Translations under genes and position numbers: made by a program
The notes under the pieces: generated by a model
Told to the model about the DNA's origin: nothing
The model's database searches: none
What the model saw: only the letters and a program-made list of their open reading frames with translations
In this document: positions 41,125-51,895 of the stretch, in pieces
Numbering within the stretch: position 1 is the first letter of the stretch
Layout of the letters: each line of letters starts with the position of its first letter
Assembly: GCF_031679605.1 (NCBI RefSeq)
Contig: NZ_CP117522.1
Coordinates: forward strand, 9,238,001-9,302,000
Length of the DNA: 64,000 nucleotides
Reading direction: 5' to 3'
Source: Streptomyces luomodiensis
GTDB taxonomy: Bacteria > Actinomycetota > Actinomycetes > Streptomycetales > Streptomycetaceae

Positions 41125-41353
41125 CCCTCCCGGCTCGTGCTGCCGTTCACGAGCCGCTGATCACGGACCACATCCCGGGGGAGCGGCCGGCAGCCACGTT
41201 CCCGGGTTCCTGACCGCCACTCACGTACTCCACGTGGTCGTACACGTGTCGGAATAGGCGCCGCGCCCATTTTCCGATGCTCTGGTCCGTCAACTGGAGC
41301 CGGAGGACCGCGCTGTGCCCTACGCTGGTCCTCTCTATACCTGGGGGGAATGG

Positions 41354-44029
41354 GTGGAACCTGGAGCAATTGGTGCTCGCTTGGCCTCGAGCGTCGTGTT
41401 CCCGCTGATCAGGAGATTGTTCGTATCGGAAAGCACTGGGGCGGGGCTGGTCGACAAACCCGTGCGTGTCTCAGGGCTGGTGTCGTTCAAAGGCGAGAAG
41501 CGCACGCTGTCCGACCGCGAGTTACAGAAGATCGCTGATGAGTTGGTGCGACGCGCTGGGCAGTCGACCGGGGTCGAGGAGCGGATGCCGTCCTATGAAC
41601 GACGCGCGGTGGCTCATGCGGTAGCCGACTCTTTACGCGCCATGGGCGATCTGGACATGGACGATGTGCAAGCGGTAAGCCTTGGCCATTTGGCGTTGTC
41701 TCAACGTCTTAGATCTCAGAGTCCGACGGCAACTCTTGGACTGTCGAGCGACGCGATCACGCTGCACGCGGCTGTCATGGACACCGCTTGCCTCCATGTA
41801 TTGCACTTCTTCACCCAGCGGTCCGCGTTCGTGCCGAGAACGTTGGTCGAACAGAGCCGTCGGCTCGATGACCTGCGAGCGAAGGTCGATGCCTTACTCT
41901 TCCGGACCCCATCGCCGGCGGACACCCCCTTCGAGGACCGCTATGCGGCGTACATCATGTCGAAGTACGGCAAGTTGACTATTTTCGGTCTCGATTTTCC
42001 TGGTGTGTCCAGTGTGTGGCCTCTGGATGCCGCCTATCTGAGCTTGGACGCGGCATCCAGGGCGGCAAGTGACGTGCCTTTGCTGCTTCCTGCCGATCAT
42101 GTATTGGAGGGGCGCAACCGAGTGCTCCTCAGGGGCGTGGCAGGGTCCGGCAAAACAACTCTTGTGCAGTGGCTTGCGGTCACCGCGACCCAAGAGGAGC
42201 CCGACGAGTCCCTGCTCTATTTGTGGGGACTCGTACCCTTCGTGCTTCCGCTGCGCGCCCTTACCCGAGACGGGGCATCATTCCCGACCCCGGACCAATT
42301 TCTCGCGGCAGTGGGCTGCCCCCTGGCGAACCTCCAGCCCACGGGGTGGTTTGATCGCGTTTTGACCTCGGGTCGCGGTTTGATCCTCATCGACGGTATG
42401 GATGAAGTTCCAGAAATTGAGCGGGAGAGCGCACGGCGATGGCTGCAAGATCTCCTCGCCGTCTATCCTGAAAACCGTTGGTTGATTACTTCGCGTCCGT
42501 CTGCGGTTCGGGACGAGTGGTTGGCCGACGAGGGGTTCATCGAACTGGACATGGCTCCGATGAGCCGGGACAGCGTGGCATCATTCATCAAGCGCTGGCA
42601 CAAGGCAGCCGGTATTGGTGATCAGTACGCCCCGGAACTGATTCGAGAGGTACAAGCCAAGCAGGCCCTTGGGCGCCTCGCGGCCAACCCTCTGATGTGT
42701 GCACTCATCTGTGCTCTGCACCAGGATCGACGCGGCTATCTGCCTGACGGTCGAAAGGAACTCTATGATGCGGCGCTTTCCATGCTTCTCTCGCGTCGTG
42801 ACCGTGAGCGCGGTATCTACAAACCCGGGATGATCCGAATCGGTGAGGCCCATCACATTCAGCTCATTCAGAAGCTTGCTTACTGGATGATCAGAAACGG
42901 TCGAGTGGAGATGGGCCGAGGCGATGCCGTGGATTTGCTGGCGCAGTCTCTTCCGGCCATCCCGCAGGTGGCTGAGCAGGGGACGCCGGAGGAAATCTAT
43001 CGGCACTTGCTGGTGCGGAGCGGCCTGTTGCGTGAGCCGAGCGTCGGATCGATGGATTTCATTCACCGCACCTTTCAGGACTACTTGGGGGCGAAGGCCG
43101 CTGTCGAGGGCCTTGACTTCGATTTCCTCATCTCCAACGCCCACCTCGATCAGTGGGAGGACGTGATCAGGATGGCCGTTGCCCATGCCCGGCCGGCCGA
43201 GCGTGTGCGCCTTCTCAATGGCCTGTTGGAGCGGGGCGATTCATCCGTGGACGGTCGCCATCGACTGCACTTGCTGGCCGCTGCCTGTCTGGAACATGCC
43301 ACGGAATTGGATCCATCCGTCAGAGACGCGGTACAAAAGCGTGCTGCGGCTTTGATTCCGCCCCGCTCGGCGGAGCAAGCGCGAGCATTGGCAGACGTGG
43401 GACCCGTTGCTCTGGAACTACTGCCTGGTCCGCAAAATCTGCACCATGAGAATAAAAATGAGAATGAAGACGCCGAAAACGACAAGGCGTCGAACGAAGA
43501 CTACTTCACGGTTCTGGCGGCCGCGCGCATTGCGACCGATGCGGCGATTCCAGTTCTGGCCCGCTACAGAAGCCACAAGGATCTGCGTGTGCGGGCTGAA
43601 CTGGTGCGGGTGTGGGGGAGATTCGATACCGTTCACTTCGGGGAAGAAGTGGTGGCATACCTCGATGATACGAATCTCTACTTTCCGGTTTCGAACCAGC
43701 GGGAATTGCGGGAACTGCAGAGGTACGGGGGCAGGTCTCGGATCAAGGTTGTCGGGAACATCTCTCAAGAGGACCTTGTAGATGCGGTTTCACGTCACAG
43801 GTTGACCCATTTATGGGTGGCTGTGGACGTCGGGTGGACATGGGAGTGGCTTTCCTTGTTCACGAATTTTCAGGTACTCACCCTGGAAACCTCTCTGGTG
43901 AGTGTCGACGTGACATCGTTGGCAGATGTGCGGTTGCGTGAGGTCCGTGTGCCGGCCGGAGTCGCTGTCCTCGGCTCCGAGAACCTGTCTCCGGCCACGA
44001 AGATCGTTCAGGAGGACCCCATCAGGTAG
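41354..44029 (+). CDS. NACHT-domain STAND NTPase (bNACHT-type defence protein)
   Basis: 891 residues from GTG 41354, which has GGGGGGA 5 nt upstream; GTG 41315 is less well placed. The N-terminal ~240 residues are helical (ARLASSVVFPLIRRLF), like NNH domains. The NACHT core has GVAGSGKTTL (about 261-270), LILIDGMDEVP (about 341-351) and LITSRPS. After a winged-helix part (MDFIHRTFQDYLGAKAAV) comes a charged linker and a leucine-rich sensor-like end. Relatives protect bacteria from phage. Base composition is plainly more AT-rich than both neighbours, a sign of transfer. No separate effector gene is adjacent. Confidence 0.88.
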   Translation: MEPGAIGARLASSVVFPLIRRLFVSESTGAGLVDKPVRVSGLVSFKGEKRTLSDRELQKIADELVRRAGQSTGVEERMPSYERRAVAHAVADSLRAMGDLDMDDVQAVSLGHLALSQRLRSQSPTATLGLSSDAITLHAAVMDTACLHVLHFFTQRSAFVPRTLVEQSRRLDDLRAKVDALLFRTPSPADTPFEDRYAAYIMSKYGKLTIFGLDFPGVSSVWPLDAAYLSLDAASRAASDVPLLLPADHVLEGRNRVLLRGVAGSGKTTLVQWLAVTATQEEPDESLLYLWGLVPFVLPLRALTRDGASFPTPDQFLAAVGCPLANLQPTGWFDRVLTSGRGLILIDGMDEVPEIERESARRWLQDLLAVYPENRWLITSRPSAVRDEWLADEGFIELDMAPMSRDSVASFIKRWHKAAGIGDQYAPELIREVQAKQALGRLAANPLMCALICALHQDRRGYLPDGRKELYDAALSMLLSRRDRERGIYKPGMIRIGEAHHIQLIQKLAYWMIRNGRVEMGRGDAVDLLAQSLPAIPQVAEQGTPEEIYRHLLVRSGLLREPSVGSMDFIHRTFQDYLGAKAAVEGLDFDFLISNAHLDQWEDVIRMAVAHARPAERVRLLNGLLERGDSSVDGRHRLHLLAAACLEHATELDPSVRDAVQKRAAALIPPRSAEQARALADVGPVALELLPGPQNLHHENKNENEDAENDKASNEDYFTVLAAARIATDAAIPVLARYRSHKDLRVRAELVRVWGRFDTVHFGEEVVAYLDDTNLYFPVSNQRELRELQRYGGRSRIKVVGNISQEDLVDAVSRHRLTHLWVAVDVGWTWEWLSLFTNFQVLTLETSLVSVDVTSLADVRLREVRVPAGVAVLGSENLSPATKIVQEDPIR

Positions 44030-49343: not shown

Positions 49344-49378
49344 TGGCCAGATGGCCTGATGTTGCTAAGATCTGGCCA
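49344..49378. promoter_or_regulatory. Inverted repeat and leaderless promoter of the GlxA-type regulator
   Basis: TGGCCAGAT (49344-49352) is inverted as ATCTGGCCA (49370-49378), the second arm ending in the start codon. TAAGAT (49366-49371) is a good -10 exactly 6 nt before ATG 49378, and no ribosome site is present, so the mRNA is probably leaderless and autoregulated. Confidence 0.6.
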
Positions 49379-50388
49379 TGACGGTTGTCGCGGTGCTCGG
49401 ACTCGATGGAGCTCTCGGATTCGAGCTGATGACCCCGGGTCAGGTCTTCGGCACGGCCAATACCGTGGACGGCCCCGGCGCGGCGTCCCCTCCCCGCTAC
49501 GACGTGCGTCTCTGCGCACCGGGCCGCTTCCTCAGCACCGCGGCCGGCTGGGGCGCGGTGGAGATGCGCACTCCGTACGACCTGGACGCGGTGGCCGATG
49601 CGGAGATCGTCATCGTCCCGGGCACTGAACGGTTTCTCGATCCTCCGGACCCGGAGGTGGTCCAGGTGTTGCGCGACGCGGCGGCGCGCGGAAGCCGCAT
49701 CGCGTCGATATGCGTGGGGGCCTTCACCCTGGCCGCATCGGGCCTGCTCGACGGAGCGCGGGCGACGACCCACTGGCAGTGGGCCGATGAACTCGCGCGG
49801 CGACACCCCGCCGTGGAGGTCGATCCCACCGTGCTGTTCGTGGACAACGGCCGGACGCTCACCTCCGCCGGTGTGGCGTCCGGGCTGGACGTATGTCTGC
49901 ACCTCATACGGACGGAAGCCGGGGCGGAACTGGCCGCGCAAACCGCCCGGCGCGTCATCATGCCGGCGTGGCGAGACGGCGGCCAGGCGCAGTTCATCGA
50001 GCACGTCAGTCCCGGCGACACGAGTGACTCGCTCCAGCCGACCATCGACTGGATGGAGAAGAACCTGACGGCGCCGCTGGATCTCACGGCGATCGCACGG
50101 CATGCGGCGATGAGTGTGCGCAGCCTGAACCGGAAGTTCAGACACCAGATCGGCACCACTCCACAGCAGTTGCTGTTGCAGATGCGCATCGACCGCGCCC
50201 GGCGGCTGCTGGAGACCACGCATCTGCCGGCCGATCAGGTGGCGGAAGAATCCGGATTCGGCTCGCAGGCCTCACTCCGCTACCACTTCACACGACTCGT
50301 GGGGACATCCCCGCACGCCTACCGGCTGGCGTTCAACTCACACCGTCGCACGCCATCGCGCACGGCTCTTGGCGCGGATGGTGGGTGA
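49378..50388 (+). CDS. GlxA-type regulator: DJ-1/PfpI domain plus AraC HTH
   Basis: 336 residues. The N-terminal class I amidotransferase-like domain (1-200) has IVIVPGTERF and SICVGAFTLAASGLLDGARATTHW; the Cys of SICVG sits at the nucleophile elbow. The C-terminal AraC pair includes LTAIARHAAMSVRSLNRKFRHQIGTTPQQLLLQMRIDRARRLLE and DQVAEESGFGSQASLRYHFTRLVGTSPHAYR. It may control the divergent HD gene. Confidence 0.93.
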   Translation: MTVVAVLGLDGALGFELMTPGQVFGTANTVDGPGAASPPRYDVRLCAPGRFLSTAAGWGAVEMRTPYDLDAVADAEIVIVPGTERFLDPPDPEVVQVLRDAAARGSRIASICVGAFTLAASGLLDGARATTHWQWADELARRHPAVEVDPTVLFVDNGRTLTSAGVASGLDVCLHLIRTEAGAELAAQTARRVIMPAWRDGGQAQFIEHVSPGDTSDSLQPTIDWMEKNLTAPLDLTAIARHAAMSVRSLNRKFRHQIGTTPQQLLLQMRIDRARRLLETTHLPADQVAEESGFGSQASLRYHFTRLVGTSPHAYRLAFNSHRRTPSRTALGADGG

Positions 50389-50457
50389 GGCGGCTGGTCG
50401 ATACCGTGCGCTACACTTGATCTTGCTGCGGCGCCCGAACTCCGGGCCGCCGGACGC

Positions 50458-50527
50458 GCGTTGGTGGTCCAAGGAAAGACGCTCCGCTTCCTGCGGGGAG
50501 ATGCAGGTGCAAGGCCTGCCCAGCGCT
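50458..50527 (+). tRNA. Atypical tRNA-Gly (anticodon UCC)
   Basis: A full cloverleaf can be folded by eye. Acceptor GCGTTGG/CCAGCGC (7 bp, one G-U), T8, D-arm GTC/GAC with A14, G18-G19 and A21, anticodon stem CTCCG/CGGGG with loop CTTCCTG (anticodon TCC), variable loop AGAT, T-stem GCAGG/CCTGC with loop TGCAAGG, discriminator T73. All known bacterial glycine identity elements are there (G1-C72, C2-G71, G3-C70, C35, C36, U73). Odd points: G at position 55 where U is nearly universal, and a pyrimidine at 37. CCA is not encoded. A perfect terminator hairpin begins 6 nt later. It could be a specialised or decaying tRNA. Confidence 0.62.
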
Positions 50528-50533
50528 CGGGAG

Positions 50534-50565
50534 ACGAGCCCACCCCGCATGCGGGGTGGGCTCGT
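50534..50565. terminator. Terminator of the tRNA-like gene
   Basis: A perfect 32-bp palindrome: ACGAGCCCACCCCGCA followed by its exact complement, then TGGGTTTC. No gene other than the tRNA-like unit ends here, so a short independent transcript is implied. Confidence 0.85.
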
Positions 50566-50731: not shown

Positions 50732-51658
50732 TCAGGCGTCCGGGACCAGGAGGCTCTTCGCGGAGTCGCGGAAGTGGGCGATGAGCGGGTTGCGGTCGTC
50801 GGCACGGGTGACGACGACCACCTGACAGGGTTCGACTCCCTCGATGGGTACGGTGGCGAGGTCGTCCCGGAGCGCGCAGCGCCGGTCATAGGCCGGCACG
50901 AGGGCGATGGCCTGGCCGTCGGCGACCAGTTCCAGCTTGTCCTCGAAGGTGTCGACGAGCACCGGACCGTGGGGAGCCGGGGCACCGTCCGGGCGGGGAT
51001 CGAGCCGCCAGAACCCGTTCCACACCGCGGCCATGCCGGCAACGGCCACCAGGGGTTCGTCGGCGAAGTCGGCCGGGCTGACCGACTCCTTGCCCGCGAG
51101 GGGGTGGGAGGCGGGCACGAGCAGGACCCGGGGTTCGTCGTAGAGGACGGTCACGCGCAGGCCATCGGTCGGGATCGGCAGCGGCGTGCGGACGACAAGC
51201 GCGTCGACCCGGCGGTCGGGCAGGGCGCGGACCTGGTCCCAGTCCAGGTGACGGGTGCGGACGTGGGCGTCGGGATGGCGGTCGCGCAGGTCCCGCACCA
51301 CGGCGGTGATGACGAGGTCCTCGACGTATCCGATGGTGATCGTGCGCGCCGGCGCCGCGGCGCGCGCGGTGCGCACCGCCTGCTGGGCGGCGTGCAGGAG
51401 TGCCTGTGCCTGCGGCAGGAATGCCGCGCCGGCCGCGGTGAGGCCGCTGCCCTGCGTGGTGCGCTCCAGCAGGCGCACCCCGAGGACGTCCTCCAGCCGC
51501 TGGATCTGGCGGCTCAGGGACGGCTGGGCCAGATGCAGTGCCTCGGCTGCCCGGGTGACGTTCAGATGCTCGGCGACGACCACGAAGTACCGCACCAGCC
51601 GCAGGTCGAGGTCCGAAACGGCGGTGGGCGGTGAGGCGGGGGAGGACTCGTCGGGCAT
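50732..51658 (-). CDS. LysR-family transcriptional regulator
   Basis: 308 residues from ATG 51658, chosen because TATAAC lies exactly 6 nt upstream with no ribosome site, as in a leaderless mRNA; ATG 51682 would add 8 residues. N-terminal [49 protein letters not shown]. The C-terminal effector domain has [12 protein letters not shown]. The target is unknown; the nearest co-directional gene is the NmrA-like one at 51896. Confidence 0.92.
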
Positions 51659-51895
51659 ACCGCCGTTATACCGCTCCGGCATGACGGGTGCGAAACAGAA
51701 CCGTGGACGCCCAGCGCGGAGGGTCGTCGACGCGCCGGGGACCGCCGGCGCCTCACACGCTCACCGCACGTGCAGCGTGTGCGCGATGGCCACCGGGCGC
51801 GGCCGTGCCGAGGACGCCGACAACCGCACGAGGCCGAACCGGGCGCCGAACCACGCCGGGTGAACACGCCGATCAGCCGGTGACGCGCCGAGGGC

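What the first reader, a model, noticed from the sequence alone, without database searches (positions are those of the whole stretch)
50458..50565. Atypical tRNA-Gly(UCC) with its own terminator: a candidate for non-ribosomal use
Seen: full cloverleaf with every glycine identity element, followed at once by a perfect 32-bp terminator palindrome. The T-loop is TGCAAGG (G55 instead of U55) and position 37 is a pyrimidine, both very unusual for a translational tRNA. Known: staphylococci keep deviant tRNA-Gly copies for cell-wall peptide synthesis, and some antibiotic pathways use aminoacyl-tRNA. Inference: this may be a secondary tRNA-Gly feeding such a route, or a decaying copy.
Basis: partly seen in the sequence, partly recalled or inferred. 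Interest (0 to 1): 0.75.

Follow-up and report, generated by a model that had tools for sequence, protein, structure and literature searches.

The report
Deviant glycine tRNA family in Streptomyces
This small gene is a real, strongly conserved but odd glycine transfer RNA, one copy of a scattered Streptomyces family that probably hands glycine to something other than the ribosome, as staphylococci do for their cell wall.

Summary
Window 50458-50528 is a complete tRNA-Gly(UCC) with G55 (T-loop TGCAAGG) and U37, followed by a perfect 32-nt palindrome. It is not a decaying copy. It belongs to a dispersed family found in 162 of 295 Streptomyces genomes, in several copies in some, and also on plasmids. 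Mean column identity of the 71-nt body is 97.8% over 192 type-I copies, against 40-56% in the flanks. A -10 like box precedes 213 of 218 copies, and stems covary. Two sister types have 6-nt or 4-nt "anticodon" loops that should not decode, yet keep the acceptor-stem glycine determinants, U73 and a CC in the loop. Tandem tRNA-Gly genes beside a staphylococcal provirus share the same oddities: CUUCCCG loop, G55, A51-U63. The genome also has a U55 tRNA-Gly(UCC). Best reading: an accessory glycyl-tRNA donor outside decoding, resembling the staphylococcal cell-wall tRNAs. Charging, expression and acceptor are untested. No partner gene was found: neighbours are diverse, and FemAB number and LanB-like genes do not track the family.

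The parts
50412..50417 (+). -10 like box TACACT, 46 nt before the tRNA body
   Evidence: sequence; TAnnnT lies between -60 and -31 in 213 of 218 copies against 4 of 436 control windows; the sigma-70 scan, which also asks for a -35 box, found none
50441..50454 (+). leader hairpin TCCGG-GCCG-CCGGA in the 5' leader
   Evidence: predicted fold; leader partly alike in the three own copies
50458..50528 (+). tRNA-Gly(UCC)-like body, type I, through C74; no CCA encoded (UCGG)
50487..50493 (+). anticodon loop CTTCCTG (anticodon TCC at 50489-50491; U37, G38)
   Evidence: pyrimidine 37 in 191 of 192 type I copies
50508..50514 (+). T-loop TGCAAGG with G55
   Evidence: read as TGCAAGG by the script in 93 of 95 copies from searches that did not fix this loop
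50534..50565 (+). perfect 32-nt palindrome, putative intrinsic terminator without T-run
   Evidence: 3' 55 nt fold at median -35.0 kcal/mol in 218 copies against -20.6 in upstream control

Best explanation
The element is an independent RNA gene (own promoter, leader, tRNA body, hairpin terminator). It makes a glycine-type tRNA that has been released from decoding. Inferred steps: RNase P and CCA addition mature it; glycyl-tRNA synthetase charges it through G1-C72, C2-G71, G3-C70, U73 and the CC of the loop; the altered elbow (G55), the A51-U63 pair and the Y37/G38 anticodon loop make it a poor EF-Tu and ribosome substrate; the glycine is handed to an aminoacyl transferase, most likely of the Fem type (peptidoglycan, LL-Dpm-Gly bridge; the bridge type is recalled). 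Shown here: a conserved, structured, multi-copy family with conserved glycine determinants and with sister types whose loops should not decode. Not shown: every biochemical step.
For: The body is conserved while flanks drift (0.978 against 0.40-0.56), with 897 of 900 stem cells paired in 45 distinct bodies and compensatory changes, e.g. 29-37 G-C/A-U and 49-59 G-C/A-U in alignment positions. Of 95 copies from searches that did not fix the T-loop, 77 are type I, 9 type II (6-nt loop CUCCAA) and 9 type III (4-nt loop NNCC on a 6-bp stem). Over all types GCG at 1-3 is kept in 218 of 218, CGCU(73) in 217 and a CC in the loop stretch in 217 of 218. These are the bacterial glycine determinants listed in PMC9976931 (passages read). 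Four tandem tRNA-Gly(UCC) genes on staphylococcal provirus contig L429 have the loop CTTCCCG, T-loop TGCAAAT (2) or TGTAAAT (2), A49-U65, A51-U63 and no GG in the D-loop. PMC4052509 (passages) gives A49-U65, A51-U63 and loss of GG18-19 as marks of the S. aureus non-proteinogenic tRNA-Gly. The family has A51-U63 in 44 of 45 distinct bodies, whereas the genome's U55 tRNA-Gly have G51-C63 (read). A U55, A37 tRNA-Gly(UCC) is present beside it. FemAB-family proteins occur in 295 of 295 Streptomyces genomes.
Against: The D-loop keeps GG in all 192 type I copies, unlike the staphylococcal tRNAs, and pair 49-65 is G-C, not A-U. The family was not found in 133 of 295 genomes although all have FemAB, so it cannot be required for the bridge. 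FemAB number does not track it (permutation p 0.98 within size quartiles). No neighbour gene is shared beyond syntenic groups. The 7-nt UCC loop of type I could still decode. By overall identity type I is hardly nearer to the core tRNA-Gly (0.64) than to tRNA-Arg(CCT) (0.63), and type II is nearer to tRNA-Trp (0.63) than to a tRNA-Gly (0.56) among the own tRNAs. No expression data were found.
Confidence: 0.58

Rival explanations
1. A tRNA-like regulatory RNA: the cloverleaf is a stable scaffold whose loop pairs with mRNA or which binds a protein, like tRNA-Other of Bacillus cereus.
For: Free-standing genes with own -10 box and 3' hairpin; a pseudo-tRNA with effects on gene expression and antibiotic resistance is known (PMC3399842, abstract and passages).
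Against: The loop sequence changes between types (CUUCCUG, CUCCAA, AACC/AGCC/UGCC/AUCC) while the glycine determinants of the acceptor stem stay. That points to charging rather than to base pairing by the loop.
Confidence: 0.17
2. An extra decoding tRNA-Gly(UCC) that adds to translation of GGA/GGG codons.
For: Type I has a 7-nt loop with U33 and a UCC anticodon; ARAGORN accepts it.
Against: Y37 and G38, G55, types II and III without a usable anticodon loop, a U55 tRNA-Gly(UCC) already present, not found in 133 of 295 genomes.
Confidence: 0.12
3. A decaying tRNA copy or a remnant of an integration site.
For: Low tRNA score; damaged copies exist: L048 is truncated at its 5' half and L310 has a shortened D arm; one of 93 copies lies inside a called low-scoring ORF (L218).
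Against: Body conservation with covariation, -10 box and 3' hairpin kept in diverged flanks; no integrase family among the 25 commonest Pfam families of 132 flanking proteins; no match in 50,697 phage records.
Confidence: 0.04
4. A short dispersed repeat (tRNA-derived mobile cassette) kept mainly because it spreads, or a decoy for tRNA-attacking toxins.
For: Several copies per genome at unrelated places, plasmids (71 of 72,556 records, 137 places), pairs 1.1-1.3 kb apart, presence and copy number grow with genome size.
Against: Only the 71-nt body is strongly conserved, not the whole unit; syntenic copies are shared between species, e.g. downstream of the tsaD gene in 10 of 90 loci.
Confidence: 0.09

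Closest known systems
Staphylococcal non-proteinogenic tRNA-Gly for the pentaglycine bridge (reviewed in PMC4052509, passages read; Giannouli 2009 not read)
   Same: Glycine determinants; UCC anticodon in a CUUCC(C/U)G loop; G55 T-loop UGCAA..; A51-U63; extra to the normal tRNA-Gly.
   Different: Streptomyces family keeps G18G19 and G49-C65, lies as dispersed genes, also on plasmids, was not found in 133 of 295 genomes, and has sister types with 6- and 4-nt loops.
Core deviant tRNA-Gly(UCC) of Streptomyces (T-arm CGCAGTGTGCRATYCCTG), seen here
   Same: UCC, TGTGC in the T-arm, an A-U pair at the third T-stem position in the register I read, nearest own tRNA to type I (0.64 identity; tRNA-Arg(CCT) 0.63).
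   Different: Found in 100 of 101 genomes; tRNA-Gly(GCC) close by in 13 of 14 loci read; A37; D-loop without GG.
tRNA-Other of Bacillus cereus (PMC3399842, abstract and passages read)
   Same: A tRNA-like RNA outside translation whose deletion is not deleterious in rich media.
   Different: Trp anticodon, poorly charged with lysine in vitro, beside an island.

Membership tests
tRNA (RF00005) | Cloverleaf over the family's gathering score | tested here: met
   38.7 bits against 29 for the window copy; of seven type II and III loci, one (L230, type II) matches the tRNA family at 35.7 bits and the other six do not up to E 0.05
Decoding tRNA-Gly | 7-nt anticodon loop with U33 and purine 37, U55 | tested here: not met
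   Loop length and U33 are met by type I, but Y37 in 191 of 192 and G55 in all 192 type I copies; types II and III have no 7-nt loop. That these features define decoding tRNAs is partly recalled; U55 from PMC7912444 (passages)
Glycine-accepting tRNA (bacterial) | G1-C72, C2-G71, G3-C70, U73, C35, C36 (set from PMC9976931) | tested here: met
   kept in the window copy; GCG 218, CGCU 217, CC 217 of 218 copies; placing CC at 35-36 in types II and III is inference
Staphylococcal-type non-proteinogenic tRNA-Gly | A51-U63 in place of G51-C63 | tested here: met
   44 of 45 distinct bodies; rule from PMC4052509
Staphylococcal-type non-proteinogenic tRNA-Gly | A49-U65 in place of G49-U65 | tested here: not met
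   G49-C65
Staphylococcal-type non-proteinogenic tRNA-Gly | GG 18-19 replaced by UU or CU | tested here: not met
   GG in the D-loop of 192 of 192 type I copies
Staphylococcal-type non-proteinogenic tRNA-Gly | G55 T-loop and C37/G38 loop as in the tRNA-Gly array of L429 | tested here: met
   (U37 in 173, C37 in 18, G37 in 1 of 192; G38 and G55 in all 192)
Staphylococcal-type non-proteinogenic tRNA-Gly | Charged with glycine, avoids EF-Tu, used by a Fem transferase | not testable with these tools
   needs biochemistry

The most novel reading that the evidence does not exclude
Streptomyces carry a dispersed, plasmid-spread family of glycyl-RNAs derived from a tRNA that has given up decoding: two of three types have lost a usable anticodon loop but keep the acceptor-stem glycine determinants. 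They would be a dedicated aminoacyl-RNA supply for a non-ribosomal glycine transferase, reached independently of staphylococci with the same elbow and loop changes.
Probability: 0.42. Interest if true: 0.85.

Novelty: new variant of a known kind. Interest (0 to 1): 0.66.

Why it matters
How cells split charged tRNA between the ribosome and other users is known in detail for few cases. A conserved family in antibiotic producers whose members differ in decoding ability, but not in the acceptor-stem charging determinants, gives natural variants to test that question, and may mark an overlooked glycine-donor route in cell-wall or natural-product synthesis. None of the type II and III loci given to ARAGORN was called as tRNA-Gly, so such copies are easy to miss in annotation.

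Tried and rejected
Pseudogene or integration-site remnant: rejected. Link to a biosynthetic cluster: 93 copies in 90 loci share no neighbour except in syntenic groups and broad families. Pfam on 132 flanking proteins shows at most 6 members of one family, MFS_1; these are 130 of the 150 genes printed by the script (157 listed in all; short ones and repeats left out by hand) plus the two window genes. AAA_33 ATPases are among the neighbours in 4 of 132; one plasmid neighbour of that kind had a single homologue in the fetched set, and I did not follow the others. FemAB partner: no association; with 1, 2, 3 and 4 or more estimated FemAB proteins, 64 of 113, 66 of 131, 25 of 43 and 7 of 8 genomes are family-positive (table transcribed by hand; protein number estimated as half the matches). 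LanB-like (PF04738): 70 of 108 positive and 70 of 91 negative genomes have one, Fisher p 0.086, in the direction against a link. Empty-site comparison downstream of tsaD: 3 of 24 compared loci carry the element, but the rest were too diverged to read an insertion point. Known Rfam family other than tRNA: none convincing. Papers: ten searches; none of the listed rows describes this family in its title or abstract start. The lists were capped and the library is open-licence PMC only. Loop as anti-Shine-Dalgarno: the loop is not kept across types. Outside the genus: 14 non-genus genomes matched the model weakly; of 11 loci read, 10 are ordinary U55 tRNA-Gly or tRNA-Arg and one (L273) was read at the wrong offset and shows nothing. 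The pattern scan lists one Actinacidiphila record and the plasmid search two Streptantibioticus records.

Full report
What is there. The window lies at 9.24-9.30 Mb of a 10.04-Mb single-contig genome. Between an AraC/DJ-1 type regulator gene (49378-50388, +) and a convergent LysR gene (50732-51682, -) sits a free-standing tRNA-like gene at 50458-50528 (+). It has a -10 like box 46 nt upstream, a leader hairpin, and a perfect 32-nt palindrome 5 nt after C74.

It is one of a family. A DNA search of 61 genomes found matches in 17, all in the genus, with three copies in the own genome plus a sister type at 77%. A covariance model over 295 genomes of the genus matched 176 at E 1e-4; in 14 of these only weak hits (1e-6 to 1e-8) occur, and those read are a different, core tRNA. 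That leaves 162 of 295. The largest number of matches in one genome is 9 (G245), of which 8 are listed as strong; the ninth could be the core tRNA. Positive genomes are larger (mean 9.04 against 8.02 Mb). Plasmids: 71 of 72,556 records with 137 places, 69 Streptomyces and 2 Streptantibioticus; many are near-identical S. clavuligerus records. Phages: none of 50,697 records. In 296 genomes of the class the strong hits are all in the genus (16 genomes); 14 non-genus genomes give weak hits, of which 10 of 11 read are ordinary U55 tRNA-Gly or tRNA-Arg.

It is under selection. Over 218 distinct copies with flanks, 192 are type I in one register with 45 distinct bodies. Mean column identity is 0.978 in the body and 0.40-0.56 in the flanks. 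897 of 900 stem cells in the distinct bodies pair, with compensatory changes. TAnnnT occurs between -60 and -31 in 213 of 218 copies against 4 of 436 control windows, and the 3' 55 nt fold at median -35.0 against -20.6 kcal/mol upstream. Caveats: copies were found by similarity, related genomes are not independent, and 123 of the 218 come from a scan that fixed the T-arm or from named hits. In the other 95 the T-loop reads TGCAAGG in 93 by the script; of the two exceptions L232 has the same loop on a changed stem and L223 has TGCAATC, so G55 is in both. Encoded CCA is present in 70 of 192 type I copies; the window copy has none.

Decoding seems dispensable, the acceptor-stem glycine determinants do not. 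Type I has a CUUCC(U/C)G loop (U37 in 173, C37 in 18, G37 in 1 of 192). Type II has a 6-nt loop CUCCAA and type III a 4-nt loop AACC, AGCC, UGCC or AUCC. Types II and III should not be able to present a codon-reading loop. G1C2G3, CGC-U73 and a CC in the loop stretch stay in 217-218 of 218 copies. The glycine determinant list is from PMC9976931 (passages). The own genome has three type I copies and one type II.

Parallel with staphylococci. I recalled a staphylococcal tRNA-Gly fragment and tested it. It matches two viral-collection contigs. L429 holds four tandem tRNA-Gly(UCC) genes in a tRNA array, and 6 kb of its phage part match 161 phage records, 157 of them Staphylococcus. These genes have the loop CTTCCCG, T-loop TGCAAAT (2) or TGTAAAT (2), A49-U65, A51-U63 and no GG in the D-loop. 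PMC4052509 (passages) states that three of five S. aureus tRNA-Gly isoacceptors have elements consistent with weak EF-Tu binding, namely A49-U65, A51-U63, and UU or CU for GG at 18-19. So the four genes fit that description; that they are those isoacceptors is my inference. The Streptomyces family shares G55, the loop and A51-U63, but not A49-U65 or the GG loss. So I call it a tRNA that probably works like the staphylococcal ones, not a member of that set.

A second deviant tRNA. The weak model hits led to a core tRNA-Gly(UCC) with a T-arm CGCAGTGTGCRATYCCTG, a D-loop without GG and A37. The T-arm pattern is present in 100 of 101 Streptomyces genomes, control 0, and in the own genome in the tRNA at 5302753-5302824 (-). 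It is the nearest own tRNA to type I (0.64), but tRNA-Arg(CCT) is at 0.63, so descent from it is only a possibility. It is the better candidate for the general FemX donor; the dispersed family would be an accessory. The remaining own tRNA-Gly(UCC), at 3486694, has U55 and A37.

What I could not find. No shared neighbour, no FemAB or LanB-like association, no expression data, no paper. From the element's view 35 of 92 copies lie between convergent genes, 47 in tandem settings and 10 between divergent genes, which fits insertion where promoters are not hurt. The acceptor of the glycine therefore remains open; Fem-type peptidoglycan transfer is the first candidate because the enzyme family is in 295 of 295 genomes and because of the staphylococcal parallel.

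Noticed in passing
L127 / own genome C1:5302753-5302824 (-), outside the window: A core deviant tRNA-Gly(UCC) with TGTGC in its T-arm and no GG in the D-loop, near tRNA-Gly(GCC); the T-arm pattern is in 100 of 101 Streptomyces genomes, and four of these show three matches about 118 bp apart.
   Followed up: partly
window 41315-44029 (+): 904-aa protein with an NNH1 N-terminal domain and a NACHT domain, a NACHT ATPase of the kind found in bacterial immunity (the immunity link is recalled).
   Followed up: no
L031, L034, L038, L042, L181, L194, L197, L199, L207, L213: In 10 of 90 loci the RNA gene sits in the same place, behind the tsaD gene (Pfam on L031) and a short 85-aa gene, so single copies can be stable for long times.
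   Followed up: partly
L398 (S. clavuligerus ATCC 27064 plasmid pCLA1, 1.8 Mb): The listed S. clavuligerus plasmid records hold 4 places each, one record 8; a tractable laboratory host for tests.
   Followed up: no
L429 12302-12643 (-): Staphylococcal provirus contig whose end holds a 19-tRNA array with four tandem deviant tRNA-Gly(UCC) genes; two have T-loop TGTAAAT.
   Followed up: partly
window 50458-50528: The gathering-threshold Rfam scan of the whole window missed this tRNA although its score exceeds the cut-off.
   Followed up: yes
L047, L221, L222, L225, L227, L232: Type III copies with a 4-nt NNCC loop on a 6-bp stem in place of the anticodon arm; some genomes hold several type III copies (G199, G289).
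   Followed up: partly
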